Assembly (NCBI RefSeq): GCF_000710465.2
Contig: NZ_JAIZ01000139.1
Span: 1-64,000, forward strand
DNA from: Kitasatospora sp. MBT63
Lineage (GTDB): Bacteria > Actinomycetota > Actinomycetes > Streptomycetales > Streptomycetaceae
Direction of reading: 5' to 3'
DNA: 64,000 nucleotides
Position 1 is the stretch's first letter. Each line of letters begins with the position of its first letter. The notes under the pieces are model-generated. The model had not been told where the DNA came from and ran no database searches. It saw only the letters and a program-made list of their open reading frames with translations. A program made the translations under genes and the position numbers. Positions 860 through 28,415 of the stretch are shown piece by piece.

Positions 860-892
860 ATATAAGTTACAGCAGCTATGGATGTTGTGCAA
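860..892 (-). promoter_or_regulatory. P-box 1, promoter of the 45-734 gene
   Basis: Read on the minus strand: -35 TTGCAC (887-892), a 17-bp spacer ending in GCTG, and -10 TAACTT (864-869), then ATAT. It is one of thirteen near-identical elements in the left 28 kb. The 735-1050 stretch holds only this promoter, its leader and the hairpin at 1041. Confidence 0.8.
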
Positions 893-1040
893 CCTGGATG
901 GCTCGCCTGACGCTCCTCCCCCTCCTGCACCCAGTGAACCCGCACCGCCCCCGCCGGCCGGAAGCACGGCCCGGAGACTCGGAAGCTCACCCGCGGGCCA
1001 CTGCGGTGGATCCGAGGTGGCCCTCGGCCCGCAGCGCCGC

Positions 1041-1088
1041 CTCGCCGGCGTCACGGTGACGGGCCACGGGGTGGGGCCCGCCGGCGAG
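1041..1088 (-). terminator. Hairpin at the end of operon 2
   Basis: The 10-bp arms CTCGCCGGCG (1041-1050) and CGCCGGCGAG (1079-1088) are exact complements. The left arm abuts the stop of the shifted reading frame at 1051-1053, which supports that frame as the true C-terminus of the preceding gene. Confidence 0.45.
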
Positions 1089-1310
1089 CGTGACGTCGAC
1101 TGAGGCCAGTCCCCACCGCCGCCCCGAGCGACCACCAGGGCCACCAGGGCACGGTCGGCGCCAGTTGGGCCGTCAGCGTTTCGGCGATGCCGATCAGCAG
1201 ACCGAGGCCGGCGGCCTGGCCGCGGTCGCGGTGCGCTCCAGCCGGAGAGCAGCGCGCGGCCGGAGGGTGAAGCCCATAGCGGCCGGGGTGAAGAGAGCGC
1301 CGGTGTTCAT
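1051..1310 (-). pseudogene. Small putative membrane protein, apparently frameshifted
   Basis: The ATG at 1310 overlaps the TGA of the previous gene (ATGA), so translation is probably coupled. The frame from that ATG stops after 38 codons, at 1194. Near 1217-1230 another frame takes over and runs to a TGA at 1051. It encodes a hydrophobic stretch (GLGLLIGIAETL, then WWPWWSLGAAVGTGL) and a basic tail, ending exactly at a hairpin. One missing or extra base would join the two into a protein of about 87 residues with one or two membrane segments. This may be a real mutation, a sequencing error or programmed frameshifting. Read literally, the CDS is 1194-1310. Confidence 0.45.
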
Positions 1311-1837
1311 CAGGAGCGCCCCGGGGCGGCGGGGACGGGGACGGTGGCGGTCCCTGCAGCGAACACCCGGGCGCTGGCCTGGAGGGCTCCCACGGCGGCC
1401 CGCAGCCCGATGCGGTGAAGACGAAGGTCGGCGGTGCCGTCCAGGCGCACCCGGACGGTGTCCTCCCGGCCGTCGTAGGGGCTGGGCTCGCCGTACTCGT
1501 CCGGGTCCGCGTCGGCGAGCCGCTCGGTGTACTCGCCGCTGGTGGTGACGAGGCAGCCGAACCAGCCGGGCCGGCCACCGTGGTCCACGAGCGCCTGGAC
1601 GGCGGCGACGGGCACGCGCTCGGCCGTGAGGGTGACCGAGAAACCCCGCTCCAGCCGGATGGTGATCCGGCCACCGCCGGGGGCCGGGGCCAGGAGCGTA
1701 GCGGGTGCGATGCCCGGAGCGGCGCCGGGCATGGCCGTGGCGAGCGCGGCCAGGCCGGCCCGGTCCGTCTCCTCTCGACAGGCCTCCCAGGCTGCGATCA
1801 GGCCGGTCAGGGTCGGGTGGGCGGGGCAGGTGGTCAT
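1310..1837 (-). CDS. Hypothetical protein, 175 residues
   Basis: Unknown function. The protein is soluble and Ala/Gly/Arg-rich, with a beta-rich middle (GRITIRLERGFSVTL) and an acidic loop (ADPDEYGEPSPYDGRED). The ATG at 1837 has AGAAGGG upstream and overlaps the stop of the 45-residue gene before it (ATGA). Its own stop overlaps the next start in the same way. It is third in a four-gene coupled operon behind P-box 2. Confidence 0.75.
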   Translation of the reverse strand: MTTCPAHPTLTGLIAAWEACREETDRAGLAALATAMPGAAPGIAPATLLAPAPGGGRITIRLERGFSVTLTAERVPVAAVQALVDHGGRPGWFGCLVTTSGEYTERLADADPDEYGEPSPYDGREDTVRVRLDGTADLRLHRIGLRAAVGALQASARVFAAGTATVPVPAAPGRS

Positions 1838-1971
1838 GTGCTGACCCTTCTGTGATTGGTGGTCTGCCGCCGTCCAACCCGCTGGCGCTGCGCCTCGGAG
1901 GTCGGCGGCGCCGCCGTTGAACGGGCGGGAGGGGGCGGTACGGGGACGGAGCTGGGGTTGTGGCCGCTCAT
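1834..1971 (-). CDS. Small Pro-rich basic protein, 45 residues
   Basis: This short frame starts with ATG behind GGGCAGG and ends in a TGA overlapping the next ATG (ATGA). That coupling and its place in a tight operon are the main reasons to accept it. The N-terminal half has a run of Pro and Ala; the C-terminal half is basic and hydrophilic (RQRVGRRQTTNHRR). Function unknown. Confidence 0.5.
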   Translation of the reverse strand: MSGHNPSSVPVPPPPARSTAAPPTSEAQRQRVGRRQTTNHRRVST

Positions 1972-1994
1972 GGCGGCCTGCCCGGCACCGGGAA

Positions 1995-2444
1995 CTACAC
2001 GGCCGGGGGCGTGAACTCCTTGACCTGGCGGCTGGTGCCCTCGGAGCCCCAGAGCTCGGCGCCGGCGGCGACCCGGCGGGTGGCCACGAACCATGCACTG
2101 GACGGGATCTCGGGGTACGCGCGCTTTGCGGCCTCGATGACCAGCTGGGGGAGCCGGAACGGCTTCGCGGTGCAGATCTCGAAAGCCGGGCCGGTGATGT
2201 CCTTCACGAGAGTGCCGTTCGGGCGGCGGATCTTGTAGCGCAGATTGACGCGGTGGACCCGGACCGGGCGCGTGAACTCCGCTGCGTCGACGGGGGTGAA
2301 CTGGATTTCCGCGCGCAGGACTTCGGCATCGGGGTTCGAGGTGAGGAACGTGGTCAGCGCGCCCCGGTTCACGAAAGTCTTCAACCCCCACGGGGTGCGG
2401 ACGGCGAAGATTTCGGTCGGAAGGGCGGCCGGAGAGTGGCTCAT
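1995..2444 (-). CDS. Hypothetical protein, 149 residues, first gene of operon 2
   Basis: Unknown function. The sequence alternates short beta-like segments (IFAVRTPWGLKTF, VRVHRVNLRYKI) with charged turns; no membrane segment. The ATG at 2444 (MSHSPAALP) follows AGGGA with 9-base spacing. The frame runs open upstream, but those codons overlap the promoter and look non-coding. Transcription should start at P-box 2, about 60 bases upstream. Confidence 0.75.
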   Translation of the reverse strand: MSHSPAALPTEIFAVRTPWGLKTFVNRGALTTFLTSNPDAEVLRAEIQFTPVDAAEFTRPVRVHRVNLRYKIRRPNGTLVKDITGPAFEICTAKPFRLPQLVIEAAKRAYPEIPSSAWFVATRRVAAGAELWGSEGTSRQVKEFTPPAV

Positions 2445-2508
2445 CGGAGTACGTCCCTGGGGTGCGGTGTACGGAGGGGTGTGGGAGTCGGGCGCCGCCC
2501 GGTTCATC

Positions 2509-2541
2509 TAATAAGTTGCAGCATTCATGGTGTGGGGACAG
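2509..2541 (-). promoter_or_regulatory. P-box 2 (degenerate), promoter of operon 2
   Basis: Minus strand: -35 CTGTCC (2536-2541), 17 bp, -10 CAACTT (2513-2518), then ATTA. The GCTG before the -10 and the ATTA after it are kept, but both hexamers are poorer than in most copies, which suggests a weaker promoter. Confidence 0.6.
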
Positions 2542-2605
2542 CTGCCCGGATGTCGCGAACGTGCGCTGGTCGACCTGCGGGGTGTCGGCTCTGCCCGCCG
2601 GCCCG

Positions 2606-2866
2606 TTACCAGGCAGTGGGTGTGTGCCCCCAGGTGTCGTCGACGAGTTCGGCGTCCTCGCCGCGGATGAACTGCTCGTACGCGAGCTGGATGGCTTCCG
2701 TGTGCCGGCTGGTGGGAAACGTGCAGACCCAGTCGGCGCCGTCGTAGTCGGCGGCCCGCTCGACCAGGGAGTCGAGTGCTGCCTGGTCTCCCTCGTTGAG
2801 CTGCTCCGATCCGGTGATGGTGAGCGTGCCGTCGGTGTCCCAGCGGCCGATGAGCGCTGTCAGCAA
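2606..2866 (-). CDS. Hypothetical acidic protein, 86 residues
   Basis: Unknown. A small acidic protein (GEDAELVDDTW near the end). The start is TTG at 2866, seven bases after GAGGAA; no ATG or GTG gives a better choice. It lies 65 bases after the membrane protein at 2932-3387 and is probably the last gene of the P-box 3 operon. No terminator hairpin is evident downstream. Confidence 0.65.
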   Translation of the reverse strand: MLTALIGRWDTDGTLTITGSEQLNEGDQAALDSLVERAADYDGADWVCTFPTSRHTEAIQLAYEQFIRGEDAELVDDTWGHTPTAW

Positions 2867-2931
2867 GGCTTGGTTCCTCGGGAGGCGCGGCCGGGGCGGT
2901 GCGCTCGCCCCGGCCGGGGCGGGAGCTGGGC

Positions 2932-3387
2932 TCAGGGGTGGATGCGCTCGCCCTGGTTGTCGATCTCGACGAGCAGGACACGGGGGCGCGCGCGGTGCTC
3001 GACGTGGACGTAGGGCACGGGCTGGCCGTTGGGGTCCGTGCGCAGCCGCACGAGGACGCTCACGCCGTGGACCTGCATCTCGTAGGCGTCGCTGGGTGTG
3101 CTATCGCCGGGGTCGGCGTCGACCACGGTGATGCGGGCCGCGCGAATCTTGCGCTCGGTCGCCCGGGTGGCCCGGCGGGGCGTGGCGGGCATGGTGGAGG
3201 TGAAGACCATGAAGGCGGCGATGGCGAGGGTGGCGACGAGCGCCCCCTGGCCCGGGGAGCCGGTGTCGGCCAGCCAGGCGAGTGCCAGTGCGGTTGCGGC
3301 GGCGGGGGCGCCGTAGCGCCCTGCCCAGCGGTGCCACGGGTTGGGCTGCGGGCGCCTGGCGGGTATCTGGCGGACGGGGCGGTTCAT
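2932..3387 (-). CDS. Small membrane protein with two transmembrane helices, 151 residues
   Basis: A basic Pro/Arg-rich N-terminus (1-22) is followed by two adjacent hydrophobic segments (about 27-42 and 48-66), then a soluble C-terminal domain of about 80 residues with beta-strand character (VSVLVRLRT, VPYVHVEHRARPRVLLVEID). The short linker between the helices suggests a hairpin with both ends in the cytoplasm. ATG at 3387 follows GGAG with 7-base spacing. Family not recognised; second gene of the P-box 3 operon. Confidence 0.7.
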   Translation of the reverse strand: MNRPVRQIPARRPQPNPWHRWAGRYGAPAAATALALAWLADTGSPGQGALVATLAIAAFMVFTSTMPATPRRATRATERKIRAARITVVDADPGDSTPSDAYEMQVHGVSVLVRLRTDPNGQPVPYVHVEHRARPRVLLVEIDNQGERIHP

Positions 3388-3437
3388 GAGGTTCTCCGGG
3401 GCGAGGTTGGTGGCAGGTGTCGGCCGTGGGCGAAGGG

Positions 3438-3905
3438 TCAGGTGGCGGGTGTCTCGGTGTCCTCCGTGAGGTCGACCTCGACGCGAGTGCCGTCCGGTGC
3501 CTCGACGGTGAAGATGCTGGCGGTGGTCCGCTGCCGCCTCTGGGCGGCCCATGCCTTTTCGGCGGCTTCCCGGTAGCTGCTGGCCTCGATGTCCATGACC
3601 CAGCTGACGGTGTAGGAGCGTGTGGGCTGGCTCGGGATCTTGATCAGCGTGATGGTGAACTCCTGGAGCCCGGTCTCCCGGTTGGCGTCGGCGAGTTCGA
3701 TCAGCTCGTCGGCGATGGCGGAGCCGAAGTCGATCTCCACGGAACTGCCGTTGAGCAGCGTTGCGGTCAGGGCCTCGTCGTAGGCGGGCCCCTCGGGGTA
3801 GCTGTGGTCGAGGGTGACGGCGAGGGTGGTAACCGGGGACGGGAGGGCGCGCTCCGCAAGGTCGGCGCGGACCGCGTTGATCAGGTCGACCATCTCGGGT
3901 ATCAC
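3438..3905 (-). CDS. Hypothetical protein, 155 residues
   Basis: Unknown function; acidic, mixed alpha/beta, with a conserved-looking core (SYTVSWVMDIEASSY, then EAAEKAWAAQRR). GTG at 3905 has GGGAGA four bases upstream and is preferred to the in-frame ATG at 3893, which has no ribosome site. It is the first gene after P-box 3, with a leader of about 53 bases. Confidence 0.7.
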   Translation of the reverse strand: MIPEMVDLINAVRADLAERALPSPVTTLAVTLDHSYPEGPAYDEALTATLLNGSSVEIDFGSAIADELIELADANRETGLQEFTITLIKIPSQPTRSYTVSWVMDIEASSYREAAEKAWAAQRRQRTTASIFTVEAPDGTRVEVDLTEDTETPAT

Positions 3906-3960
3906 GGATTCTCCCTCGGCTCGTGTACTGGGTGGGGCCGGGGATCTCCACCGGCACATG

Positions 3961-3993
3961 TAATAAGTTACAGCATCTATGGTGATTAAGCAA
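3961..3993 (-). promoter_or_regulatory. P-box 3
   Basis: Minus strand: -35 TTGCTT (3988-3993), 17-bp spacer ending in ATGCTG, -10 TAACTT (3965-3970), then ATTA. It serves the 3905, 3387 and probably 2866 genes. Confidence 0.85.
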
Positions 3994-4120
3994 TGCACCT
4001 ATGGTCCGTCCGGCGCGGGGAGGCCGCCGGTGACGCCAGGGGGCGGCTGGGGCACGGTGATGGGGCGCGGAGGATCGGCGCGGCCCTGCATATCCGCCGG
4101 CCTGCCCGGCCGGTGTGCGC

Positions 4121-4444
4121 TCACCAGCTGATCTGGGCGTCGGCGCGGCCGAGTTCGCTCAGGCACCAGCGGATGGTCCTCTCGTTCTGCTGGTGCCACA
4201 CCTCGGCTTCCACGAGCGTCGCGGCGAAGGCGTCTACGGTGGTCACCCCTCGCTCGTAGGAGTTCTCCGCGTACGTAGCGAGGGCATCGGCGGCCGCGCG
4301 GGAGAGCTTGAGCGCGCGCAGCGCCCATGCCTCGGTGGCTTCGCCGTTGTCGTCGGCGGCGGGAGGGGCGCCGATGTGGCTCTTGAAGGCGGCGTCCGCC
4401 GCGTCGAGTTCTGTCCGCAGAGAGCCGGACTGCGCGGGGGTCAC
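4121..4444 (-). CDS. Hypothetical alpha-helical protein, 107 residues
   Basis: Unknown. Mostly helical, Ala/Glu/Arg-rich, ending in Trp. Its GTG start overlaps the stop of the gene before it (GTGA), so the two are translationally coupled. No P-box precedes this pair, unlike most neighbours. Confidence 0.65.
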   Translation of the reverse strand: MTPAQSGSLRTELDAADAAFKSHIGAPPAADDNGEATEAWALRALKLSRAAADALATYAENSYERGVTTVDAFAATLVEAEVWHQQNERTIRWCLSELGRADAQISW

Positions 4445-4716
4445 CAGGCGCCTCCGTCCTGCGGCGTGGCGTCGTCGGACTCGAGTGCCGTCATCCGCTT
4501 CGCGTGGTCGTCGGGGCTGATGAGTCCGGCCGCGAGCTGCGCGTCGATCAGGTCGCGAATGGGCGGCAGAGCGTCGGCCCGGGCGGCGGCGATGCGTTCC
4601 TCGTCGCCGCTGTGGCAGGCGAGCAGCCACACGGCTCGGCGGACGATGGCCAGGCCGGCCAGGTCGCGCAGCGGCAGTGCCGCCTGCGGGTCAGGGGCAG
4701 GAGCAGGGGTGGTCAC
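4441..4716 (-). CDS. Hypothetical protein with a SHOCT-like C-terminal helix, 91 residues
   Basis: Unknown. The segment IDAQLAAGLISPDDHAKRM (about 57-75) resembles the short oligomerisation helices of SHOCT/DUF1707-type proteins (length and I-S-x-x-x-H/E pattern); this is a weak similarity read by eye. GTG at 4716 has GGAAC five bases upstream. It is coupled to the 4121-4444 gene by a GTGA overlap. The 190 bases before it hold no gene I would accept. Confidence 0.6.
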   Translation of the reverse strand: MTTPAPAPDPQAALPLRDLAGLAIVRRAVWLLACHSGDEERIAAARADALPPIRDLIDAQLAAGLISPDDHAKRMTALESDDATPQDGGAW

Positions 4717-4868
4717 GGGGGTTCCGTTCTGGGGTGGAGGTGGGGTATGTCGGGGCTGGTGGGCCGGGAGGCGCCTTGTCCCGCGCGGTCCGCGGATTCG
4801 ATGCCAGATGGGTCGAGGTCGGCCGCCCTGTGGCGGGCGGAATGCCGCCCCGACGACTGAGGTCCAAG

Positions 4869-4899
4869 GCGGGCCTGCCGGTGCTACTGGCAGGCCCGC
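4869..4899 (-). terminator. Terminator after the 4908-5267 gene
   Basis: The 11-bp arms GCGGGCCTGCC (4869-4879) and GGCAGGCCCGC (4889-4899) pair perfectly around a 9-base loop, nine bases past the stop codon. Confidence 0.65.
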
Positions 4900-4907
4900 G
4901 CCGCCCG

Positions 4908-5267: not shown

Positions 5268-5351
5268 CAGTGGATCCCCTTCGCGGGCTCGATGTCGGTG
5301 GAGCGTGACCGGGGCGGCGGGCCGGATGGGCGGCGCCGCATCCGCGACTAG

Positions 5352-5384
5352 TTATAAGTTACAGCATCTATGGCTATGGGGCAA
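5352..5384 (-). promoter_or_regulatory. P-box 4
   Basis: Minus strand: -35 TTGCCC (5379-5384), 17-bp spacer ending ATGCTG, -10 TAACTT (5356-5361). It serves the single gene at 4908-5267. Confidence 0.85.
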
Positions 5385-6524: not shown

Positions 6525-6610
6525 CGGTCGGGTGCTCCTATTCGTTGGATCGGTCTTGGCCGGCCGCCTCCCGCCTCGGCGGCCTCGGCAGGAGACGGCA
6601 CTGAGGTGGA

Positions 6611-8676: not shown

Positions 8677-8709
8677 TAATAAGTTACAGCACTGGATTAC
8701 TTATGGCAA
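8677..8709 (-). promoter_or_regulatory. P-box 5
   Basis: Minus strand: -35 TTGCCA (8704-8709), 17-bp spacer ending GTGCTG, -10 TAACTT (8681-8686), then ATTA. It serves the 8616-5374 gene string. Confidence 0.85.
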
Positions 8710-10277: not shown

Positions 10278-10310
10278 AAATAAGTTACAGCATGGAATGT
10301 CTTTTGGGAA
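10278..10310 (-). promoter_or_regulatory. P-box 6
   Basis: Minus strand: -35 TTCCCA (10305-10310, a weaker hexamer), 17-bp spacer ending ATGCTG, -10 TAACTT (10282-10287). Its leader of about 126 bases is one of the longest in the set. Confidence 0.8.
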
Positions 10311-14278: not shown

Positions 14279-14311
14279 TAATAAGTTACAGCACTATTCG
14301 TCATTGGGCAA
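14279..14311 (-). promoter_or_regulatory. P-box 7
   Basis: Minus strand: -35 TTGCCC (14306-14311), 17-bp spacer ending GTGCTG, -10 TAACTT (14283-14288), then ATTA. It drives the lipoprotein and at least four downstream genes, to the hairpin at 11742. Its -35 lies inside the 3' end of the methylase-like gene. Confidence 0.85.
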
Positions 14312-15220
14312 GCTCTGCTGTGCCGGTCGGGCGGCTCGCACCTGGTGCAGCAGAGCGTCGCGCCGACCGACGGCTTCGCTGCGTTCGGCGGCGGCGCGCT
14401 CCAGGCCGCTGTCGGGCGTGGCGAGTGCGTCGGCGGCGGCGATCAGAACGTCGCCGCCCAACCTCCAGATGACGCTGTTGGCCGCGAGGACCGCAGCTGC
14501 GAGCGGATCCAGTTCCACGCCCACCCAGGACTTGCCGGCCGGGTCCTGGCCTTCGGCGAGCATGTGACGGGCGGCGGCCCGCCACATGGCACCGCTCCCT
14601 GCGGCCGGCTCCCCGATCACCTGGTCCGCGGGGGCGCCGCCGACGTCCAGGATCTCGGCCATGAGCGTGGTGACGGCTGCGGGCGTGTGGAACTCCCCGC
14701 GGCTCTGCTTGTCGGTGTGACCGCGCAACTGCTGGAGCAGGCGTCCGAGGATGTCGCCGCTCAGTGCCCGCTCGTGGTCGCCGGCGAGCTCCAGGAGGCC
14801 GGTCCGGATGCAGGTCTGGACGACCACCAGGGCACCGTGCTGCTGCCACGGCTGGGGGGCGTCGATCCAGGCCCGCAGAGGGCGGGCCCGCTCGACGATC
14901 GCCGGCCGCGCCCACCACAGCTGCTGCCAGGCGCGGTCGAGCAGTTCGGTCATGGCCTCAGGGGACAGGGCGGCGACCTGTCCCGCGAGGGCTCCGGCTG
15001 CGGGGTCGAGGACGGGCAGGACCGCGGTGATTGCCACTGCTCCGATGGCCACCTCGATTCCGGCGCCGCCGGTCGTGGCCAGCCAGGCGTCGCGGACGCT
15101 GTCGGCGATCTTCCGTGCGTGTTCCGCGCCGTCCTCGGGGATGAGCAGGCGCCGGGCCTGGGCGGACTGGAATAGAGGGAGGCGGGCGACCTCCGCAGCG
15201 GACAGGGCGAGGTCAGGCAT
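14294..15220 (-). CDS. Truncated N6-DNA-methylase-like protein, 308 residues
   Basis: The C-terminal half has the start of an N6-adenine methylase fold: GEFHTP (175-180), then the SAM loop GEPAAGSGAM (203-212), GVELDPLA and a GDVL strand. The chain ends soon after, without the NPP(Y/F) catalytic motif, so it may bind SAM or DNA but should not methylate. The N-terminal 160 residues are helical. It is a clear paralogue of the 16400-17314 product, which stops at the same place. ATG at 15220 has GGAG upstream and overlaps the previous gene by 8 bases. Confidence 0.75.
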   Translation of the reverse strand: MPDLALSAAEVARLPLFQSAQARRLLIPEDGAEHARKIADSVRDAWLATTGGAGIEVAIGAVAITAVLPVLDPAAGALAGQVAALSPEAMTELLDRAWQQLWWARPAIVERARPLRAWIDAPQPWQQHGALVVVQTCIRTGLLELAGDHERALSGDILGRLLQQLRGHTDKQSRGEFHTPAAVTTLMAEILDVGGAPADQVIGEPAAGSGAMWRAAARHMLAEGQDPAGKSWVGVELDPLAAAVLAANSVIWRLGGDVLIAAADALATPDSGLERAAAERSEAVGRRDALLHQVRAARPAQQSLPNDE

Positions 15221-16399: not shown

Positions 16400-17314
16400 T
16401 CAGCCGGCCATCGCAGCATCGAGGGTCCAGACGGCCGCGACGGCGGATGCGTGGCCGAGGAGCCGGTCGCGGTGGGCGACCAGTTCCGCCTTCTCCCGGG
16501 CGGCCTGCTCGGGGCCGTCGCCCTCCACCAGGGTGTCACCGGCCCAGACGAGGGTGTTGGGGCCGAGGTCCCAGAGAATCGCGTTGGCGGCGGCGACAGC
16601 GGCCGCGAGCGGGTCGAGCTCGTTCAGCACCCAGCGGTAGTCGGCGGGGGAGCGACCGTGCTCGCGCAGCCGCTGGGCCATGAGACGCACCATCGCGCCG
16701 GTCCCGCTGGTCGGCTCCAGGAAGGACTGCCCCGGGACGACAGCGTCCATGTCGACGGTGATCAGGCGGGCCATGAGGGCGGCCATGTCCGGCGGGGTGG
16801 GGAACTCGGCGAGCGCGCGCTGCTCACCCCTGGAGCGCATCAGGGCGACGACCCAGCCGAGGAGGTCGGTGTCGCTGCGGAAGTAGGGGTCGGCGTCGCC
16901 CACGAGGTCGAGCACTCCGGCCTTGAGGACGGCGTGGGTGACTGCCCTGACAGCGTCCGCGTACCGGGCGGCCTCGTCGTCGTCCTGCAGCCAGTCGTGG
17001 AGGGGACGGGCGCGGGTGGCGAGGTCGGGGCGCAGCACCCACCACCGGGTCCAGGTCTTGCGGTAGGCCTCGGCGAGGGTCTCGGCGTCCAGGCCCATGA
17101 CCCAGTCCGCGTAGCGCGGGGCCTGCTCGCCCTTGAACGGGAGGACAGCCAGGCTGGCGACCACACCGATGGGGATCTCGATGCGGTTACCGCCGCGCTC
17201 GCTGTGCCACGCGGAAACAGCGGCCTGCGCGATGGCGTAGGCGGCTTCCTCGCGGCTGCCGACGGCGCGGTAGTGATGTCCCCCGATGACCGGCTTGGGG
17301 AGGGAGTTGTACAT
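16400..17314 (-). CDS. Truncated N6-DNA-methylase-like protein, 304 residues
   Basis: Same plan as the 14294-15220 product: a helical N-terminal part with a shared WWxxRPxxxxRARPLxxW signature (91-109), AEFPTP (169-174), the SAM loop FLEPTSGTGAM (198-208), NELDPLAAAV and a GPNTLVWAGDTL strand. It then stops after a helix without NPPY. The shared end point suggests a stable family rather than random decay. ATG at 17314 follows AAGGGT. It lies 49 bases after the anti-sigma-type gene in the P-box 8 operon. Confidence 0.75.
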   Translation of the reverse strand: MYNSLPKPVIGGHHYRAVGSREEAAYAIAQAAVSAWHSERGGNRIEIPIGVVASLAVLPFKGEQAPRYADWVMGLDAETLAEAYRKTWTRWWVLRPDLATRARPLHDWLQDDDEAARYADAVRAVTHAVLKAGVLDLVGDADPYFRSDTDLLGWVVALMRSRGEQRALAEFPTPPDMAALMARLITVDMDAVVPGQSFLEPTSGTGAMVRLMAQRLREHGRSPADYRWVLNELDPLAAAVAAANAILWDLGPNTLVWAGDTLVEGDGPEQAAREKAELVAHRDRLLGHASAVAAVWTLDAAMAG

Positions 17315-17915: not shown

Positions 17916-17948
17916 TAATAAGTTACAGCATCAATCTTGAATGGGCAA
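17916..17948 (-). promoter_or_regulatory. P-box 8
   Basis: Minus strand: -35 TTGCCC (17943-17948), 17-bp spacer ending ATGCTG, -10 TAACTT (17920-17925), then ATTA. Confidence 0.85.
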
Positions 17949-18981: not shown

Positions 18982-20445
18982 TCAGTGAGCGGCGGCTGCC
19001 TCCCGCACCGCAGTGCGGACTGCTACGCCGCCGCGACGGCCGAGGCCGTGGAAAAGACGCAGCACGTCGGGCAGGTCGATCTGGCCGTTGGCCCGGCGAT
19101 ACATCGCACCCGCAGCCACCAGTTCGTCGAGCAGGGCGTCTCCGCCGGCGTTGCGCGGGCCGACCGGTGCACCGTGTGCCGACGGCTTCCCGAGAAGGGT
19201 GGTCTGGCGCCACCGATCGAACACCGCGTCAGGGACGAGGGGGACCTGCAGACCCTCCAGCGGGGCAAGGGCGTCGTGGATCCAGGGAGCGGTGCGGGCC
19301 AGTTCGTCGGCCCGCACACGGGCTCCGGCGATCACAGCGGCCCGGCCAGCGGTGTGGTGAATGGCTCGCTCGTGGCCGGGCAGCGTGTTGGCGGTCTGCT
19401 CGGCCGCCGCGGCGAGAGCGGCGAGGAAGGAGCGCGGTGAGACACGGCCGACGGCGTCCTGGAGGCGGCCGGGGAGCCAGTCGTAGAGGTTCCCGCGGCG
19501 GGGGCTTCCGTCGACGTGGGGGTCGGCGAGCTGGTCGAACAGGGTCCGCTGCGCTCCCGGATCGGAGCGCAGGGCGGAGGGGGCGGTGAACTTGCCGTCC
19601 TGGTCGAGCTCCCACCCCGGGTGCAGTGCGCGGAAGGCGGAGCCGGACGCGCCGGGGTGGTTGCCGAGGAGCTCGAAGGCCAGGCCGTACAGGGCGACCC
19701 AGCGGTCGGGTGCGTAGCGGTCACGGCCCCACGACAGCTCGGCGGTGCGGGGCGCCCGCCGGCTGGGCTCCCTGCTGGTTCCCAGGCCGGCGAGCACGTC
19801 CGGCTGGACGAACACCTTGAGGCGCACCCTGCTGCAGTGCTGCCGGCCGGCCGGGGCGTCGGCGAGAGCCCCGTCGAGTTCGAGGAGCGCCCGGAGGTGT
19901 CCCTCGACCGCGGCGCGGTCGGTGTGCAGCATCTCCAGGCCGTCGAAGAGCACCAGGACGTCGCCCTGGTCCTGCTCGGCGCAGCTGGTCGCGAAGCGCT
20001 GGAGGGCGCCCGGGTCGGCGGCGACCCAGTTGCAGCGCTCTGCCCACGTCGGGTAGCCGGCGGCCTCGGGGGCTCCGACGGCCGTCAGCAGGACGGCGGT
20101 CCACAGGTGGAGCGGGCGTACACCCGCGCTGATGAGGCCGGCCACGGTGGCCGGCTGGATCCCGGAGCGCTCACCCCCTGCGGTGTGGCCGGCGACCACG
20201 CGGGTGCGGGTCAGACGCGGAAGCCGGTAGGAGCGGGCGATGAGGTGCCGCGAGGCGGTGTCGGCAAGCGCGGTGCTCCAGAACGTCTTGCCCGCCCCCA
20301 TGGCACCGGTGACCACGGAGGTCTCGGCGACGAGGGCCGCCCTGAAGCCGGCCGCGGTGTACAGGTGAGCCTGCTGGGAGTCCGCAGTGCCGGTCAGTGC
20401 CTCGCTCATCAAGGCCCGAGCCTGCCGTGCGGGGAGCTCGATCAC
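18982..20445 (-). CDS. P-loop ATPase of unknown family, 487 residues
   Basis: Walker A is VTGAMGAGKT (45-54) and Walker B is DVLVLFDGLEML (162-173), so ATP or GTP binding is likely. The roughly 300-residue C-terminal region is helical, basic and Ala-rich, without a recognised domain. The layout resembles STAND or AAA-type proteins more than ParA. GTG at 20445 has GAAGGGA upstream. It precedes the degenerate ParA-like gene, with a hairpin between; the two might form a partition or regulatory pair (inference). Confidence 0.75.
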   Translation of the reverse strand: MIELPARQARALMSEALTGTADSQQAHLYTAAGFRAALVAETSVVTGAMGAGKTFWSTALADTASRHLIARSYRLPRLTRTRVVAGHTAGGERSGIQPATVAGLISAGVRPLHLWTAVLLTAVGAPEAAGYPTWAERCNWVAADPGALQRFATSCAEQDQGDVLVLFDGLEMLHTDRAAVEGHLRALLELDGALADAPAGRQHCSRVRLKVFVQPDVLAGLGTSREPSRRAPRTAELSWGRDRYAPDRWVALYGLAFELLGNHPGASGSAFRALHPGWELDQDGKFTAPSALRSDPGAQRTLFDQLADPHVDGSPRRGNLYDWLPGRLQDAVGRVSPRSFLAALAAAAEQTANTLPGHERAIHHTAGRAAVIAGARVRADELARTAPWIHDALAPLEGLQVPLVPDAVFDRWRQTTLLGKPSAHGAPVGPRNAGGDALLDELVAAGAMYRRANGQIDLPDVLRLFHGLGRRGGVAVRTAVREAAAAH

Positions 20446-21155: not shown

Positions 21156-21188
21156 TAATAAGTTACAGCACATGGAGTCATTGGGCAA
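21156..21188 (-). promoter_or_regulatory. P-box 9
   Basis: Minus strand: -35 TTGCCC (21183-21188), 17-bp spacer ending GTGCTG, -10 TAACTT (21160-21165), then ATTA. The shortest leader of the set (about 38 bases), before the HicA-like gene. Confidence 0.85.
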
Positions 21189-22307: not shown

Positions 22308-22607
22308 TCAGTACCCGGACGTGCTCTGGCGGGCGGCGCGGGAGGCCTCACGCGCGGCCCGGAGGCGGTTGACCATCACGGGGTGATGGGCGAGGGCCCG
22401 CTCGGTGTCGAGCAAGCCGTTGAGCAGCTGGTAGTAGCGACTCGGCGAGATGCCGAGTTCCTGGCGGATCGCGCTTTCCTTCTGGCCGGCCGTGATCGGA
22501 GGATCGGCGGACCAGTGGCGGGACTCGAAGTCCAGAACCGCACGCTCCCGGTCGGAAAGCGCGATGGGCCCGGCGCGCTCACTGGAGAGCTGGTTGGAAT
22601 CGGTCAC
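22308..22607 (-). CDS. DUF3263 family protein, 99 residues
   Basis: The DUF3263 signature covers nearly the whole chain: LSDRERAVLDFESRHW (about 16-31), the KESAIRQELGISPSRYYQLLNGL helix-turn-helix-like core, then a HHPVMVNRLRAAREASRAAR tail. The family is actinobacterial, small and probably DNA-binding; its function is not established. GTG at 22607 follows TGGAGAA. First gene after P-box 10. Confidence 0.85.
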   Translation of the reverse strand: MTDSNQLSSERAGPIALSDRERAVLDFESRHWSADPPITAGQKESAIRQELGISPSRYYQLLNGLLDTERALAHHPVMVNRLRAAREASRAARQSTSGY

Positions 22608-22701
22608 GTGGTTCTCCAGTCCTTGGCGGTCCCGCCGGGGCGCGGGTACTGCGAGAGAGGGGAGCGTGTTCCGGATGGCGCATGACCGCATCGGAAGACT
22701 C

Positions 22702-22734
22702 AAATAAGTTACAGCGCAAACTTCAATAAGACAA
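22702..22734 (-). promoter_or_regulatory. P-box 10
   Basis: Minus strand: -35 TTGTCT (22729-22734), 17-bp spacer ending GCGCTG, -10 TAACTT (22706-22711), then ATTT. It lies back to back with the plus-strand ADP-ribosylglycohydrolase gene. Confidence 0.8.
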
Positions 22735-22896
22735 CTCGTATTCGTCTCATTGACGATAAGTGGTCGAGTGTGCCAGCATGATGCCCAGCGAGCCCCCGGG
22801 GTGAGCGGAAGCGCCGCAGAGCGCCCCGCCCCGACGCTCCGCTCCCCTCACACCATCCGCCCGCTTCGGCGCGGCAACCACTGACCCGGAGGCACC

Positions 22897-24495: not shown

Positions 24496-24503
24496 CGAGC
24501 AGC

Positions 24504-24570
24504 CGGAACGCCAGAGGTGGCGGTGGCCACCCCCGATTCGGGGGTGGCCACCGCCACCTCTGGCGTTCCG
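24504..24570. terminator. 31-bp perfect hairpin, bidirectional terminator
   Basis: The arms 24504-24534 and 24540-24570 are exact complements with a 5-base loop (GATTC). It lies between the stop codons of the convergent 22897 (+) and 25375 (-) genes, 8 and 4 bases away, and should end both transcripts. Confidence 0.85.
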
Positions 24571-24574
24571 CCCT

Positions 24575-25375
24575 CTACCCTCGGGCGATCTTGCGCTGGG
24601 CCTCGGCCAACGCGTTGACGGTGCTGCGCAGGTAGAGGGGTTCCTTCACATCCGGGTGCCGGCCGTCGCCCGGCGTGCGGTCGGGCGTGATCCGACCGTT
24701 GGTCTTCAGGTTGTTCATGGTGTTGCGGGGATACGGCTTGCCGCGGGCGAAGTTGCCGACAATGACGCCGGCCTCCGTGAGGGTCAGGTAGTCGTCGGGG
24801 TTGCCCTCCGGCAGGACACCGATCAGCGCCGGGTTGCCGGGCTCGCTCTCGGTGCGCTTCCGGCCTTGGCCGCGCATGCCGCGGCCCGGCCGGTTGAGCA
24901 GGAACGTGTTGATGGTGCGGCGGAACCAGTGCGGCTCGTAGACCTGCGGCTCCTTGCCGTCGTCGGGTTGCCGGTCCGGCTCCGGAACTTGGCCGCGGGC
25001 GACGTAGCTGCGCATCGTGCTGTCGCCGAGCGGCTCCCCGCGCGTGAAGTTGCCGAAGACCACGCCGAACTCCTTGCGGTTCAGCAGGTCGGCCGGGTTG
25101 CCGCGGGGCAGCTTCGCCAGGAGCTCCTGCTCAACGGCGTCGGAGCCGTGGTGGGCCTGAAGCCACTGCAGACGGTCGTGCGTCTCGACGTAGGCGTCCA
25201 CCTCGGCCGCGTCGTAGAGGAGCTGCGCGGCGCCCCTGGACTGCTCGGGGGCACGCTCGGAGCCGACTGCGTCCGGGAAGTCGGGGTCGGCGATCCATTG
25301 CTGCAACAGGCCGGGCTGGATCTCGTAGGTCTCCTGGATGCCGGCGCGGGTGGTGGTCCCGGCTTGGATGCTCAT
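24575..25375 (-). CDS. AlpA-like multi-domain DNA-binding protein, 266 residues
   Basis: An AlpA/MerR-type unit occupies about 12-72 (QPGLLQQWIADPDFP, then EVDAYVETHDRLQW). Two copies of a related unit follow, at about 91-160 and 190-258. Each has LPxGNPxDxL, a xGNFxRGxP turn, a helix (STMRSYVARGQV; NTMNNLKTNGRI), a PDRxPxDGxxP loop and a closing W/YLRxTxN helix. Such units resemble excisionase-type winged helices that read one half-site each, so this protein may bind a long, repeated operator. ATG at 25375 overlaps the upstream stop (ATGA). Regulatory function is inference. Confidence 0.7.
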   Translation of the reverse strand: MSIQAGTTTRAGIQETYEIQPGLLQQWIADPDFPDAVGSERAPEQSRGAAQLLYDAAEVDAYVETHDRLQWLQAHHGSDAVEQELLAKLPRGNPADLLNRKEFGVVFGNFTRGEPLGDSTMRSYVARGQVPEPDRQPDDGKEPQVYEPHWFRRTINTFLLNRPGRGMRGQGRKRTESEPGNPALIGVLPEGNPDDYLTLTEAGVIVGNFARGKPYPRNTMNNLKTNGRITPDRTPGDGRHPDVKEPLYLRSTVNALAEAQRKIARG

Positions 25376-25902
25376 TCGGCGGACTCCGCGTCAGGGGTGG
25401 AAGTAGTGGTGTCGGGATGTCCCGCAGGGCTCGCGGGTCGGCTGCCGGCAGGCAGCTTGTGCGGCTCGAGGATGTACGCGTAGACCGTCCGTCGGTACCA
25501 GCGGGGTCCCCGTACGGTCGGGGACTTGCCGTCGGCGGGGCGGCGGTCGGCCCGGGGGACCTTGCCGCGCGCCTCGTAGCTCCGGATGGTGATCTGGGGG
25601 ATCGGACGCCCGCGGGTGAACTCCAGGAGGCTCCCGAACTCCTGGGCGGTGAGCAGGTCCTCGTCGTCGCCCTCGGGCAGGCCCAGCGGGTTGGGGTCGG
25701 TCTGAGTGGCGGCCCAGACCGCTGGGTGGTTCGCGCGGACCCAGGCATCGACCAGCTCGGGCCTGTACCGCCGGGTGCCGGGCTCGGGAGCGGGGAAGGT
25801 CGGGTCCGTGGTCCACCGGCGGGTCACATTGTCCGTGACCCTGTACTTGCGGCTGATGGCCGGCCGAGGCATCGGTTGGGGGCCGGCGCCTGCAGGGATC
25901 AC
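25372..25902 (-). CDS. AlpA-like DNA-binding protein, 176 residues, shorter paralogue
   Basis: Same architecture as the next gene but with one repeat unit. An AlpA-like domain at about 16-62 (YRVTDNVTRRWTTDPTFP, then ELVDAWVRANHPAVW) is followed by one unit at about 74-145 (LPEGDDEDLL, RGRPIPQITIRSYEARGKV, RRPADGKSP, WYRRTVYAYIL). The pair probably arose by duplication of the helix unit. GTG at 25902 follows GGAGAA. Transcription starts from P-box 11, the most divergent copy, which would fit autoregulation. Confidence 0.7.
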   Translation of the reverse strand: MIPAGAGPQPMPRPAISRKYRVTDNVTRRWTTDPTFPAPEPGTRRYRPELVDAWVRANHPAVWAATQTDPNPLGLPEGDDEDLLTAQEFGSLLEFTRGRPIPQITIRSYEARGKVPRADRRPADGKSPTVRGPRWYRRTVYAYILEPHKLPAGSRPASPAGHPDTTTSTPDAESAE

Positions 25903-25996
25903 GGGAGTTCTCCAACGGGCTCAAGAGCCCTGGAAGGGCCTTCTGGGGACTCGGGCCCGAGTGGACCGGAGGGTTGTGCCGGCTGCCCGGCACAGG

Positions 25997-26029
25997 AAAT
26001 AGAATACAGCGCAGTATGACGAGGTGCAT
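25997..26029 (-). promoter_or_regulatory. P-box 11 (divergent)
   Basis: Minus strand: -35 ATGCAC (26024-26029), 17-bp spacer ending GCGCTG, -10 TATTCT (26001-26006), then ATTT. It keeps the spacing and GCTG of the family but has a different, stronger-looking -10. It drives the AlpA-like pair. Confidence 0.65.
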
Positions 26030-26073
26030 CGTTCTGGTCCAAGTTCGGCCAGAAGGTCGTCAGTGGCGCAAAC

Positions 26074-26110
26074 GCCGGAACGCCCGCTCCTGGGGAGCGG
26101 GCGTTCCGGC
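26074..26110 (-). terminator. Tandem terminator, distal hairpin
   Basis: A perfect 17-bp stem (26074-26090 with 26094-26110) and a 3-base loop, between P-box 11 and the end of the 26164-26814 gene. Confidence 0.7.
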
Positions 26111-26122
26111 ATCGTGGCGGGT

Positions 26123-26159
26123 GCGGTGGGTGGCGGCGCGGCGGGCCGCCACCCACCGC
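26123..26159 (-). terminator. Tandem terminator, proximal hairpin
   Basis: A perfect 14-bp stem (GCGGTGGGTGGCGG, 26123-26136, with 26146-26159), four bases past the stop of the 216-residue gene. With the next hairpin it shields P-box 11 from read-through. Confidence 0.7.
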
Positions 26160-26163
26160 TTGG

Positions 26164-26814
26164 TCACTCGGTGCCGGTCTCGGCCTCGCTGTCGGTGCCG
26201 GTCTCGTCCTGGTGTACGAGGTCGAGGAAGGCGATCTTGCTCTCGTAGTCGGACGCGGTCAGCTCCAGCGCGGTGATGTTGGCGCGGAGGATGGCGAGCT
26301 TGGCGTGCAGTGCGGCCTTCACCTCCGGGGCGCGGAACTTGCTGTACGCCGTGGTCAGCGCCGTGTGCTCGGGCCGGGCGAGCCAGTGCTTGACCAGCGC
26401 GCCGACGATGTCCCCGGCCCGCTCGCCCGTCTCCTCACCGGCCGAGTGGGAGTGCGAGTGCGTGGGGTGGGAGGCGACCCGCGAACGGAACCACTGCCCG
26501 TCCTCGTCCGTGATCTTGTTCGGGTTCAGGATCGCGCCGCCGACCAGGTACGGCCCGTCGCCCCCGATGGTGGGCACGTTGGTCCGGGCGTGGCGGTCGT
26601 TCAGGTCACCCTCTCCGAACTGCACGTAGACGCGACCCGGCTTCGGGTCCGTGCGGTGGTCCGGGTGGATCACGACCGAGCCCATCGGCAGGACCTCGCC
26701 GGTGCGCTTGACGAGGCTTGTGGCGTAGGTGGAGCGGCCGAACTGGTCGTCGGTGATCTCGACCTTGAGCACGCGGCCGGTGGGGGTCTCGATCGTGGCG
26801 GTGGTGGCAGACAT
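26164..26814 (-). CDS. Hypothetical protein, 216 residues
   Basis: Unknown. The N-terminal 100 residues are beta-rich (TGRVLKVEITDDQFGRSTYA, GSVVIHPDHRT, GRVYVQFGEGDLND). The middle carries a His-rich HPTHSHSHS segment that could bind metal. The C-terminal 70 residues form helices ending in an acidic tail. ATG at 26814 follows GAAGGGA. Monocistronic behind P-box 12, with two terminators after it. Confidence 0.7.
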   Translation of the reverse strand: MSATTATIETPTGRVLKVEITDDQFGRSTYATSLVKRTGEVLPMGSVVIHPDHRTDPKPGRVYVQFGEGDLNDRHARTNVPTIGGDGPYLVGGAILNPNKITDEDGQWFRSRVASHPTHSHSHSAGEETGERAGDIVGALVKHWLARPEHTALTTAYSKFRAPEVKAALHAKLAILRANITALELTASDYESKIAFLDLVHQDETGTDSEAETGTE

Positions 26815-26874
26815 GACGGTCCCTTCGTGGGTTTGCTGGGGTTCTGTGAGGGGCTGTCGCCCCGGGCTCACATC

Positions 26875-26907
26875 TAATAAGTTACAGCACTTTGAGTCGC
26901 TGTGCAA
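26875..26907 (-). promoter_or_regulatory. P-box 12
   Basis: Minus strand: -35 TTGCAC (26902-26907), 17-bp spacer ending GTGCTG, -10 TAACTT (26879-26884), then ATTA. Confidence 0.85.
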
Positions 26908-26923
26908 CTCGAATTCGGATGGA

Positions 26924-27667
26924 TCAGGAGGTGAGGCCGAGGTTGGCCCGCTTGGCGGCGCGTACGAGGCTCTTCTCCGCGTCTATCGCGCGCTGGATCT
27001 CACCGAAGGTGCGGTCGCCCTGCAGCTTCTGGAGATGCTTGATGTTGTTGGCCGGCATGCCGACCTGGATCGCCTCGCCCGCGGCCACGAGGTCGGACGG
27101 GGTGTTCGAGACGTAGCCGGCCGCGGCCACGGCGTCCTCGGTGGGGAAGACCTCCGCGTGCGGGTCGAGGGCCAGGTCCAGGAGCCGGTCGTGCTTCCCG
27201 CCGAGGCTGTAGCGCCAGCGGAAATTGGCCGGCGCCTTTCCTTCGACGTGCCTGCGGAACATGACCACCTCCTTCGTGTAGGTGTAGAAAAGGACGTCCG
27301 GAGCGGTCTCCATGATCCGAAGCCAGCGCTTCAAGTAGTCCGCCGAATAAAAGTCTCCACTATCGTGCAAGCGAACGCTCTTGCCGAAATAGCGCTTGTG
27401 GGCGAGTTCCTCGATCATCGCCGCCTCCCATTCGTCGGGGTGGTCCATGACGAATTCCAGCGTACGCGTGTGGGCTGCCAGAACGTTGGAGAAGCGGTAT
27501 GCGCCCGCCCTTGCGTAGCAAAGCGAAATGCAAGCGGAAGCGCTGGGACAGACGTTGACCTCCCTTCCGTCGGGAAGCGTGACCTCCTCGGCGGGAAGCG
27601 TGAAGTTGTAGACCCCGATCCTCCGGAGCTGGGAATTCTGCGTCAGCATGAACTTACGGGCGGCCAT
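26924..27667 (-). CDS. Phage gp88-family protein, 247 residues
   Basis: The pattern VCPSASACISLCYARAGAY (Cys 40, 46 and 50), then LHDSGDFYSADYLKRWL and YTYTKEV, matches the family named after mycobacteriophage gene product 88. Its members are common in actinophages and plasmids; their function is unknown. The three Cys could hold a metal or cluster. ATG at 27667 is taken, a few bases after AAGGGGA; an ATG directly before it (27670) is possible. Its start overlaps the end of the previous gene. Base composition is visibly less GC-rich than its neighbours, a sign of separate origin. Confidence 0.8.
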   Translation of the reverse strand: MAARKFMLTQNSQLRRIGVYNFTLPAEEVTLPDGREVNVCPSASACISLCYARAGAYRFSNVLAAHTRTLEFVMDHPDEWEAAMIEELAHKRYFGKSVRLHDSGDFYSADYLKRWLRIMETAPDVLFYTYTKEVVMFRRHVEGKAPANFRWRYSLGGKHDRLLDLALDPHAEVFPTEDAVAAAGYVSNTPSDLVAAGEAIQVGMPANNIKHLQKLQGDRTFGEIQRAIDAEKSLVRAAKRANLGLTS

Positions 27668-28187
27668 CATTCCCCTTGTATGCGTGTGTATCCGGCGTCG
27701 GCTGATTGCCGGGGCAGTATTCGTGAACGCTGGTACAGGCGTGCACGCCGAATGCGGTGATGCCGCCCGGCTGGCGCGCGAGAAGAGCGAATGCCTTGGC
27801 GAGGGCGGTCCGCGAGGCGGCGCGGTGGCTTCCCCCGAACTGGAGCTCGTCGCCGTAGCTGGTGATGAGCTCGACACACCGGTCCCGCCCCGCCTCCAGA
27901 TGCTCCGGGGTCGCCCCCTGCTGCTCGGCGATCATCAGTGGGACCAGGCCGAGAAGGAAAGTGCGGAGAAGCTCGGGGTCGATGGGGCTGTTGCGGAGGG
28001 TCGAGGGGACGATTTCCGCGGTCACGACCCGCCCGAACGGGCCGTGGGGCCGAGCGGCGTGCACCTCGGTGCGGTTCGGGGTGCCGCTCGCCTCGCGGGT
28101 CGCGGGCCCGGGGATCGGCCGGCTGTCGGCAGTCGTCGGGCCTCGCGCGCCGGATCTCCGGCTGTTCGAGGTGGGCTTCGTCGCCAT
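27654..28187 (-). CDS. Hypothetical protein, 177 residues
   Basis: Unknown. A basic, Ser/Pro/Arg-rich N-terminal 60 residues precede a helical core (LLRTFLLGLVPLMIAEQQGATPEHLEAG, then ALAKAFALLAR). ATG at 28187 has GAAAGG upstream. It overlaps the gp88-type gene by 14 bases and shares the P-box 13 transcript, with the longest leader of the set (about 190 bases). Confidence 0.65.
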   Translation of the reverse strand: MATKPTSNSRRSGARGPTTADSRPIPGPATREASGTPNRTEVHAARPHGPFGRVVTAEIVPSTLRNSPIDPELLRTFLLGLVPLMIAEQQGATPEHLEAGRDRCVELITSYGDELQFGGSHRAASRTALAKAFALLARQPGGITAFGVHACTSVHEYCPGNQPTPDTHAYKGNDGRP

Positions 28188-28382
28188 GGCGCGGCGGCCT
28201 TTCGCTGGATCGGTTCGGCGGGGCACGGCGGCGCTGGAGCGGCGCCCGGCTGGGCCTGGGCGGCTCGGGAGGCTCCGCTCCCGGCGCGGGGGCTCCGCCC
28301 CGCCGCCGGGGAGGGGGGAGGCGGCGGGGCGGGCTCGCCGCACGGCGGGTGCGGCTCCGGTGGGGCCGGTTGCCCTCACATC

Positions 28383-28415
28383 AAATAAGTTACAGCATTC
28401 ATTGTCGTTGAGCAA
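28383..28415 (-). promoter_or_regulatory. P-box 13
   Basis: Minus strand: -35 TTGCTC (28410-28415), 17-bp spacer ending ATGCTG, -10 TAACTT (28387-28392), then ATTT. The rightmost copy; none is seen to its right. Confidence 0.85.

What the first reader, a model, noticed from the sequence alone, without database searches (positions are those of the whole stretch)
860..28415. A 13-copy promoter family (P-box) that unites the left 28 kb into one regulon
Thirteen minus-strand sites share -35 TTGCnC, exactly 17 bp, and TGCTG-TAACTT-ATTA. Every one lies 38-193 bases upstream of the first gene of an operon, and none is seen to the right of 28.4 kb. The conservation reaches beyond the hexamers: GCTG just before the -10 is kept in all copies, and AT-rich ATTA or ATTT after it in most. 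A plain housekeeping promoter does not need this. It implies a shared regulator, a special sigma factor or recent duplication of a promoter cassette. Linking about 25 unknown genes through one cis-element suggests they act as a set, perhaps at establishment after transfer.
Basis: seen in the sequence. Interest (0 to 1): 0.85.

Follow-up and report, generated by a model that had tools for sequence, protein, structure and literature searches.

The report
Lineage-specific promoter regulon on conjugative plasmids
Large conjugative plasmids of Streptomyces and Kitasatospora carry many near-identical promoters, nearly always on one strand beside the transfer genes; each plasmid lineage has its own version, probably read by a fast-changing DNA-binding protein of the plasmid that controls a set of mostly unknown genes together.

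Summary
Twelve boxes match TTGCNC-N12-TGCTGTAACTT with at most 3 mismatches (shuffles: mean 0.05), all on the minus strand; a matrix scan adds a thirteenth, weak copy at 26001-26029. None lies right of 28.4 kb. TTGCnC is in only 7 of 13, GCTG in 13 of 13.

The box belongs to one plasmid lineage: sister plasmid pKP058 has 18; of 394 family genomes only the window's own has an exact copy. New: related Streptomyces plasmids carry a different box per lineage at the same place, all built as TTGC, 17 bp, TAnnnT: 149 on the gene strand, 4 on the other, 0-4 at other spacings, in 16 regions, 776 kb. Orthologous operons carry different boxes.

A tandem winged-helix-like protein family (window 25372-25902, 24575-25375) is in 10 of 10 plasmids chosen without it, has a box itself, and this is the weakest copy in 13 of 16 regions. 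Best reading: an autoregulated establishment regulon, like that of Regp576 in Bacillus, with an unrelated regulator. Binding, sign (repressor or activator) and timing are inferred, not shown.

The parts
864..892 (-). box (-35 to -10)
2513..2541 (-). box, degenerate -35, CAACTT
3965..3993 (-). box
5356..5384 (-). box
8681..8709 (-). box
10282..10310 (-). box
14283..14311 (-). box
17920..17948 (-). box
21160..21188 (-). box, before a HicA-like ORF (below Pfam cut-off)
22706..22734 (-). box, before the DUF3263 gene
26001..26029 (-). weakest box (12.5 bits), before the candidate regulator operon; conserved in pKP058
26879..26907 (-). box
28387..28415 (-). box, the first after the tra genes
25372..25902 (-). 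candidate regulator, protein 1 (176 aa, two winged-helix-like modules)
24575..25375 (-). candidate regulator, protein 2 (266 aa, further modules)
22308..22607 (-). DUF3263 small protein, box-driven; of 10 plasmids searched only in pKP058
14294..15220 (-). N6-methyltransferase-like gene in the regulon region
16400..17314 (-). second N6-methyltransferase-like gene (just below Pfam cut-off)
28436..28861 (-). conserved HExxH protein between tra genes and first box
28952..55480 (-). conjugation region (with a plus-strand integrase cassette at 41528-44954): VirB4-like AAA_10 49474-52059, TcpC-like 53152-54243, SLT/NlpC 45039-46040, Replic_Relax 37335-38306, ParB-N protein 36019-37338
59373..60131 (-). 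GntR/UTRA regulator with its own palindromic site beside it, unlike the box
60261..60839 (+). WhiB-like protein, rival candidate regulator

Best explanation
The 13 boxes are housekeeping-type promoters (-35 TTGC.., 17 bp, -10 TAnnnT) into which the binding site of a plasmid-encoded regulator is built. They join the operons beside the conjugation genes into one regulon. The regulator is most likely the tandem winged-helix-like protein encoded inside the regulon (window 25372-25902 plus 24575-25375), which reads a long, non-palindromic site and controls its own gene through the weakest box. In an established cell it holds the regulon down; when DNA without the protein enters a new cell, the operons fire until the regulator builds up (zygotic induction). 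The genes would then serve establishment: methyltransferases against restriction, and many unknown, mosaic genes. Each plasmid lineage has changed box and regulator together. Shown here: the boxes, their strand and spacing, their lineage specificity, the regulator family's presence and its own box. Inferred: that this protein binds the box (about 0.6), that it represses (about 0.75 if it binds), that the set is expressed on entry (about 0.55).
For: At 17 bp 149 boxes on the gene strand and 4 on the other; at 12-16 and 18-22 bp 0-4 on either strand; 16 regions (window and 15 plasmids), 776,014 bases. Eight distinct box families, one per lineage, C and H being one. Orthologous operons carry different boxes in different lineages. 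The tandem family is in 10 of 10 plasmids chosen by similarity to the window's DNA, not by this protein, and in 31 of 72,556 plasmid records, all Streptomyces or Kitasatospora. In 13 of 13 genomic loci found by the protein alone, a box lies 74-165 bp before it; these loci hold 48 boxes on its strand and 3 on the other, though several loci are near copies of one another. Its own box is the weakest in 13 of 16 regions; p = 0.007 with one region per box family, 0.02 with other representatives, 0.017 without family A. Two T4SS plasmids without the family have no box in the 49.9 kb read of each. A 13-sequence model (pLDDT 77) shows two modules whose best structural neighbours include BldC, RdfS, MerR-type proteins and Xis, Z 5.0-6.5; Pfam HTH_17, MerR and AlpA hits are below cut-off.
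Against: No binding or expression data. The gene was picked as candidate before the rank test but after its odd box had been seen, so the p-values flatter it. In family E its box ranks 6 of 9 and in family B 2 of 11 and 4 of 12. Box distance between lineages A-F correlates with this protein's distance (0.84) no better than with WhiB-like (0.84) or VirB4 (0.87), and over nine lineages only 0.31. GntR and WhiB-like diverge as fast. WhiB is also in 10 of 10 plasmids. Foldseek E-values are not significant (0.63 at best), the list also holds unlike proteins (TniQ, EF-hand), and Z under 8 can be a common arrangement. In the control plasmids the whole island is missing, so they do not separate the regulator from the island. 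In the window's lineage the conserved block sits at the -10, in B-F nearer the -35, which one regulator family must explain.
Confidence: 0.5

Rival explanations
1. The plasmid's WhiB-like protein, next to the GntR gene, gives the housekeeping sigma factor its preference for the box, as an activator.
For: WhiB family in 10 of 10 plasmids; diverges as fast as the tandem family and tracks box distance as well; Wbl proteins act through sigma region 4 at the -35 (recalled). All lineages share TTGC.
Against: No box was found before its gene; it lies outside the boxed region, beside GntR's own palindromic site. In families B-F the conserved block reaches about ten bases beyond the -35 hexamer, longer than a -35 contact needs. 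The spacing is near the optimum for unaided promoters (recalled).
Confidence: 0.2
2. The tandem winged-helix protein is an activator, so that the regulon is a late or donor-side set.
For: MerR-like proteins often activate from the spacer (recalled); structural neighbours.
Against: MerR-type activation uses 19-20 bp spacers (recalled); here 17 bp has 149 sites on the gene strand, 19 and 20 bp have 3 each, near the other strand's 2 and 3. A weak own box fits negative better than positive autoregulation.
Confidence: 0.15
3. Single-stranded DNA promoters (Frpo/ssi type) that fire from the entering strand.
For: One strand, beside tra, several copies, methyltransferase genes: the layout of anti-defence islands (PMC11541004, passages). 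In 59-base folds, 6 of 13 window and 12 of 18 pKP058 boxes have four or more pairs between the -35 side and the -10 side; three of the ten 130-base folds show such a hairpin too.
Against: Stability is that of shuffles: z -2.40 to +0.54 in ten boxes, mean z -0.21 and -0.55 in 13 and 18 boxes; partners differ from box to box and no common structure appears. oriT was not located.
Confidence: 0.07
4. A dedicated plasmid sigma factor reads the box.
For: Long fixed motif with strict spacing.
Against: Sigma70_r2 in 1 of 10 plasmids, Sigma70_r4_2 over cut-off in 2 of 10.
Confidence: 0.04
5. Recent spread of a promoter cassette by duplication, without a regulator.
For: Many near-identical copies.
Against: Spacers and flanks differ between copies and between window and pKP058 while the box stays; orthologous operons have different boxes in different lineages.
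Confidence: 0.04

Closest known systems
Regp576 / EGeRS2 establishment regulon of Bacillus plasmid p576 (PMC8708921; abstract, passages and section 3.7 read)
   Same: Several operons of a conjugative plasmid, each with the same promoter plus regulator site; regulator gene inside the set, its own promoter less strictly controlled; variable gene content with anti-restriction or methyltransferase genes; clades of one plasmid family using different regulatory sequences.
   Different: The regulator there is ribbon-helix-helix and its dual motif lies just upstream of the -35 (in some also behind the start). Here the conserved block is inside the promoter, copies are more numerous (6-18 per region), and it differs between lineages within one architecture. 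Repression and transience are reported there, not shown here.
Leading-region anti-defence islands with Frpo/ssi promoters (PMC11541004; passages read)
   Same: One-strand island with transfer genes, orphan methyltransferases, repeated promoters. One example there is from Streptomyces (figure legend).
   Different: No stable shared single-strand hairpin here.
BldC and Xis/RdfS winged-helix proteins (BldC: PMC5859096, abstract read; RdfS: PMC11963761, seen in a listing only)
   Same: MerR-like winged helix; BldC binds direct repeats head to tail, asymmetrically; among the best structural matches.
   Different: Here several modules are joined in one chain; similarity is weak (Z at most 6.5).
KorSA-like GntR repressors of Streptomyces plasmids (name recalled)
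   Same: A GntR gene lies on the far side of tra in the lineages A-F examined.
   Different: The likely site is a long palindrome at its own promoter, unlike the box.

Membership tests
EGeRS2 / Regp576-type establishment regulon | several operons on a conjugative plasmid, each preceded by the same promoter-plus-site | tested here: met
   13 boxes beside T4SS genes; conjugation itself is judged from gene content
EGeRS2 / Regp576-type establishment regulon | regulator gene is a member of the set with its own site | tested here: inconclusive
   a box precedes the tandem winged-helix gene in 16 of 16 regions, the window included; that this protein is the regulator is inferred
EGeRS2 / Regp576-type establishment regulon | own promoter less strictly controlled | tested here: inconclusive
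   weakest box in 13 of 16 regions, not in families B and E; repression not measured
EGeRS2 / Regp576-type establishment regulon | ribbon-helix-helix repressor | tested here: not met
   candidate is winged-helix-like; so not filed as a member
EGeRS2 / Regp576-type establishment regulon | TTATCCC motif upstream of -35 | tested here: not met
   0 of 13 boxes have TTATCCC within 100 bases upstream
EGeRS2 / Regp576-type establishment regulon | transient expression in the recipient | not testable with these tools
   needs RNA from mating cells
Frpo/ssi single-strand promoters | stable hairpin bringing -35 and -10 together in single-stranded DNA | tested here: inconclusive
   some pairing between the halves in 6 of 13 and 12 of 18 boxes, but no more stable than shuffles (mean z -0.21 and -0.55; z -2.40 to +0.54 in 10 boxes)
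Regulon of a plasmid sigma factor | sigma factor gene shared by the plasmids | tested here: not met
   Sigma70_r2 in 1 of 10 plasmids
BldC/MerR winged-helix proteins | winged-helix module of that fold | tested here: inconclusive
   Z 6.5 to BldC over 54 residues, rmsd 2.2; Pfam hits below cut-off
MerR-type activation | promoter spacer of 19-20 bp | tested here: not met
   gene strand / other strand: 17 bp 149/4, 19 bp 3/2, 20 bp 3/3

The most novel reading that the evidence does not exclude
A modular DNA reader: chains of two or more winged-helix modules read an asymmetric code of roughly 16-29 bases built into housekeeping promoters, and plasmid lineages change the code by reshuffling or changing modules, giving 'immunity groups' of establishment regulons in which a resident plasmid silences only incoming plasmids of its own group.
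Probability: 0.3. Interest if true: 0.85.

Novelty: new variant of a known kind. Interest (0 to 1): 0.72.

Why it matters
If the regulator assignment holds, the box is a reading key: it marks, in any such plasmid, which of the many unknown genes beside tra act together at entry, and so points to candidate anti-restriction and anti-defence genes of Actinomycetota. The eight box-regulator pairs would be a natural series for working out how tandem winged helices recognise DNA. Silencing between co-resident or incoming plasmids could be predicted from the box alone.

Tried and rejected
GntR as box binder: its intergenic region carries a different long palindrome in the lineages examined. DUF3263 as the general regulator: of ten plasmids only pKP058 has it; 8 of 72,556 plasmid records have a relative, NBC_01216 among them. 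The 140-142-residue protein before the first box: HExxH motif, no Pfam hit for the window copy. ParB-N protein: slow-evolving, not pursued. Co-evolution by distance correlation: did not discriminate. The box in viral contigs and in genome contigs: 0 and 0; the window's own or near genomes may be left out there. The regulator family in viral contigs: 67 pattern stretches, none a relative. Structure of 24575-25375 alone: useless, pLDDT 34. PDB sequence search with the family profile: 0 hits up to E 1. Literature: the listings showed nothing that by title or abstract start describes these boxes or this protein family; beyond listings I read only what is named in the text.

Rows left out or added: one word in BB1-1-1 (17639) that does not look like a box was dropped (it is still in the 122). 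In the window three degenerate boxes and in pKP058 one were added by hand to the pattern matches, whereas in the other plasmids only exact TTGNNN-N17-TANNNT matches were counted, so weak copies there may be missed. Boxes near the ends of linear plasmids and the box at 230 kb of pKP058 were not used in the rank test. Families C and H are nearly the same (distance 0.03) and were merged.

Changed on re-checking: the single-strand promoter rival went from 0.05 to 0.07 and its membership row to inconclusive, because one search shows that the two halves of the box often pair, if weakly; the row on the regulator gene being a member of the set went from met to inconclusive.
Full report
OBSERVATION. 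The window is contig 139 (64,533 bases) of a draft Streptomycetaceae genome. Its first 25 kb matches Kitasatospora purpeofusca plasmid pKP058 at 90.4% identity over 79%. TTGCNC-N12-TGCTGTAACTT has 12 hits with up to three mismatches (0.05 expected), all on the minus strand between 864 and 28415; 7 are exact. A matrix scan adds a thirteenth, weak copy at 26001-26029, 12.5 bits; the next word scores -3.3. GCTG before the -10 is kept in 13 of 13, TAACTT in 11, TTGCnC in only 7, ATTA or ATTT in 11. Nothing similar was found to the right of 28.4 kb.

LINEAGE. pKP058 has 18 boxes at up to three mismatches, all on the plus strand, 17 between 44.8 and 92.9 kb and one at 230 kb, with none for the reversed control pattern. 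Nearly all annotated genes there point the same way, directly after the conjugation genes. Five more copies lie on four other contigs of the window's genome. Of 394 genomes of the family one, the window's own, has an exact copy. Scans of viral and genome contigs gave none. So the box belongs to one plasmid lineage, not to host chromosomes at large.

THE SAME REGION ELSEWHERE. Related T4SS plasmids of Streptomyces have a mostly one-strand region of unknown genes at the same place. Word counts showed repeated boxes of their own in four of them. A neutral scan for TTGNNN-N17-TANNNT gave 122 hits on the gene strand and 3 on the other in the window and eleven plasmids (one of the 122 does not look like a box), none in the right part of the window, and 39 against 1 in four more plasmids. 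Consensus: A (window, pKP058) TTGCcCAAC..-TGCTG-TAACTT-ATTA; B TTGCTTACTTCTTTTT..TGTG-TAnnnT; C and H TTGCGTATTC...TTTCA.TGTG-TAcTGT; D TTGCnTAATTGGATTTA....G-TAnnnT; E TTGCATAnCTCGATAA....G-TAcTnT; F TTGCGTATTGGG.TTTCA..TG-TAnnnT; G TTGCTTAAGTCTATGAAT...G-TAnnnT; I TTGCGTAATG... (G and I read by eye). Spacing is strict: with TTGC and TANNNT over 776,014 bases in 16 regions, 17 bp gives 149 against 4 on the other strand; each other spacing from 12 to 22 gives 0 to 4 on either strand. The conserved block lies at the -10 in family A and nearer the -35 in B to F.

ORTHOLOGOUS PROMOTERS. When the first gene after each box was clustered, groups shared by lineages carried different boxes at similar distances: one group of 10 in B to F (in B, C, E and F the first operon after tra), a second group of 10 in B to F, a 396-410 residue protein in A and D, a 375-405 residue protein in B, D and E. 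A promoter that changes in step across a whole set is what a changing trans-acting factor would produce.

CANDIDATE REGULATOR. No sigma factor is shared (Sigma70_r2 in 1 of 10 plasmids; Sigma70_r4_2 in 3, over cut-off in 2). The second group of 10 is a protein of 371-469 residues (split into two genes in A and E) built of repeated modules with sub-threshold HTH_17, MerR and AlpA hits. It is in 10 of 10 plasmids that had been chosen by similarity to the window's DNA, and in the window's genome only in the window, as 25372-25902 and 24575-25375. 31 of 72,556 plasmid records hold it, 30 Streptomyces and 1 Kitasatospora. Used as bait in genome contigs it gave 13 loci, several of them near copies; each has a box 74-165 bp before the gene, and the loci hold 48 boxes on its strand and 3 on the other. 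Its own box is the weakest in 13 of 16 regions by leave-one-out scores; exceptions are B (2 of 11, 4 of 12) and E (6 of 9). With one region per box family p is 0.007, 0.02 with other representatives, 0.017 without family A; the candidate was noticed partly through its odd box, so these are optimistic. Two T4SS plasmids outside the list of 31 show no box in the 49.9 kb read of each, but they also lack the island. A model of protein 1 from 13 sequences (pLDDT 77, pTM 0.63) has two small modules whose best structural neighbours are BldC (Z 6.5, 54 residues, rmsd 2.2), a terminase protein, TniQ, RdfS, a MerR-type protein, RacA and Xis. Foldseek E-values were not significant, so this supports a common winged-helix arrangement, not a proven relationship. 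BldC is reported to bind direct repeats by asymmetric head-to-tail oligomerization (PMC5859096, abstract), which would suit a long non-palindromic site.

MECHANISM. In p576 of Bacillus a repressor encoded in the establishment set represses several promoters, its own less strictly, and the set is expressed transiently after transfer (PMC8708921, passages and section 3.7). The layout here is alike, with an unrelated protein and with the conserved block inside the promoter. I take repression with zygotic induction as most likely. The gene content fits loosely: two N6-methyltransferase-like genes in the window region, a methylase-like ORF behind the box on contig 80 (my reading of its NPPY motif), methylase annotations in 14 of 14 related regions, and mosaic unknown genes. 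A Streptomyces mirabilis plasmid record carries the family, and transfer of an S. mirabilis linear plasmid, pI, to S. lividans is reported (PMC9195940, abstract and passages); that the two are the same plasmid is my inference. oriT was not located.

AGAINST. The WhiB-like protein is also in 10 of 10 plasmids and diverges as fast: mean identity between lineages A-F 47%, against 46% for the first 160 residues of the tandem family, 41% GntR, 63% ParB-N, 68% ADP-ribosylglycohydrolase, 73% DUF4417, 83% VirB4-like. Distance correlations do not single out a protein. Single-strand promoters are unlikely but not excluded: the halves of the box can pair, no better than shuffles.

NOVELTY. Establishment regulons with repeated promoters are known. 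One in Actinomycetota with a promoter-embedded block that differs between lineages and a tandem winged-helix candidate regulator did not appear in the listings of my searches, which cover open-licence papers only. I rate it a new variant of a known kind.

Noticed in passing
window 18982-20445: 487-residue protein in the regulon region matches the PADLOC candidate model PDC-M28C over nearly its whole length (E 1.3e-93).
   Followed up: no
window 41528-44954: Integrase, small HTH protein and 651-residue protein on the plus strand inside the tra region; in several relatives an integrase, HTH and large unknown protein lie at the far end of the island.
   Followed up: partly
window 28436-28861: Small protein with HExMH and GHK motifs just before the first box, with relatives in the nine other plasmids aligned (not found at that place in D); looks like a zinc metallopeptidase but has no Pfam hit.
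   Followed up: partly
window 60132-60260: Palindromic stretch between divergent GntR and WhiB-like genes, present with other sequence in the other lineages; probably the GntR operator.
   Followed up: partly
L043 611; L039 853; L041 35356; L042 35393: Lineage boxes also lie near the ends of linear plasmids, before a gene with a shared downstream sequence, so the regulon seems to include telomere-near genes.
   Followed up: no
window 22308-22607: DUF3263 relatives in 137 phage records, mostly Gordonia and Mycobacterium phages; in most of the 12 rows shown a metalloprotease, peptidase or IrrE-like gene is named beside it, like a repressor-protease pair.
   Followed up: no
window 56339-58486 and flanks: Large protein with a weak Crp-like HTH hit; at that place relatives have a large unknown protein with about 1 kb without annotated genes on each side, a possible replication or transfer origin region.
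   Followed up: no
AP028456.1 230111-230139: One isolated box 137 kb from the rest of the cluster, before a 160-residue unknown protein.
   Followed up: no
plasmid records: MOB-suite of 41 and 30 of 31 of these records non-mobilizable, although many carry a replication-relaxation family protein and T4SS genes.
   Followed up: no
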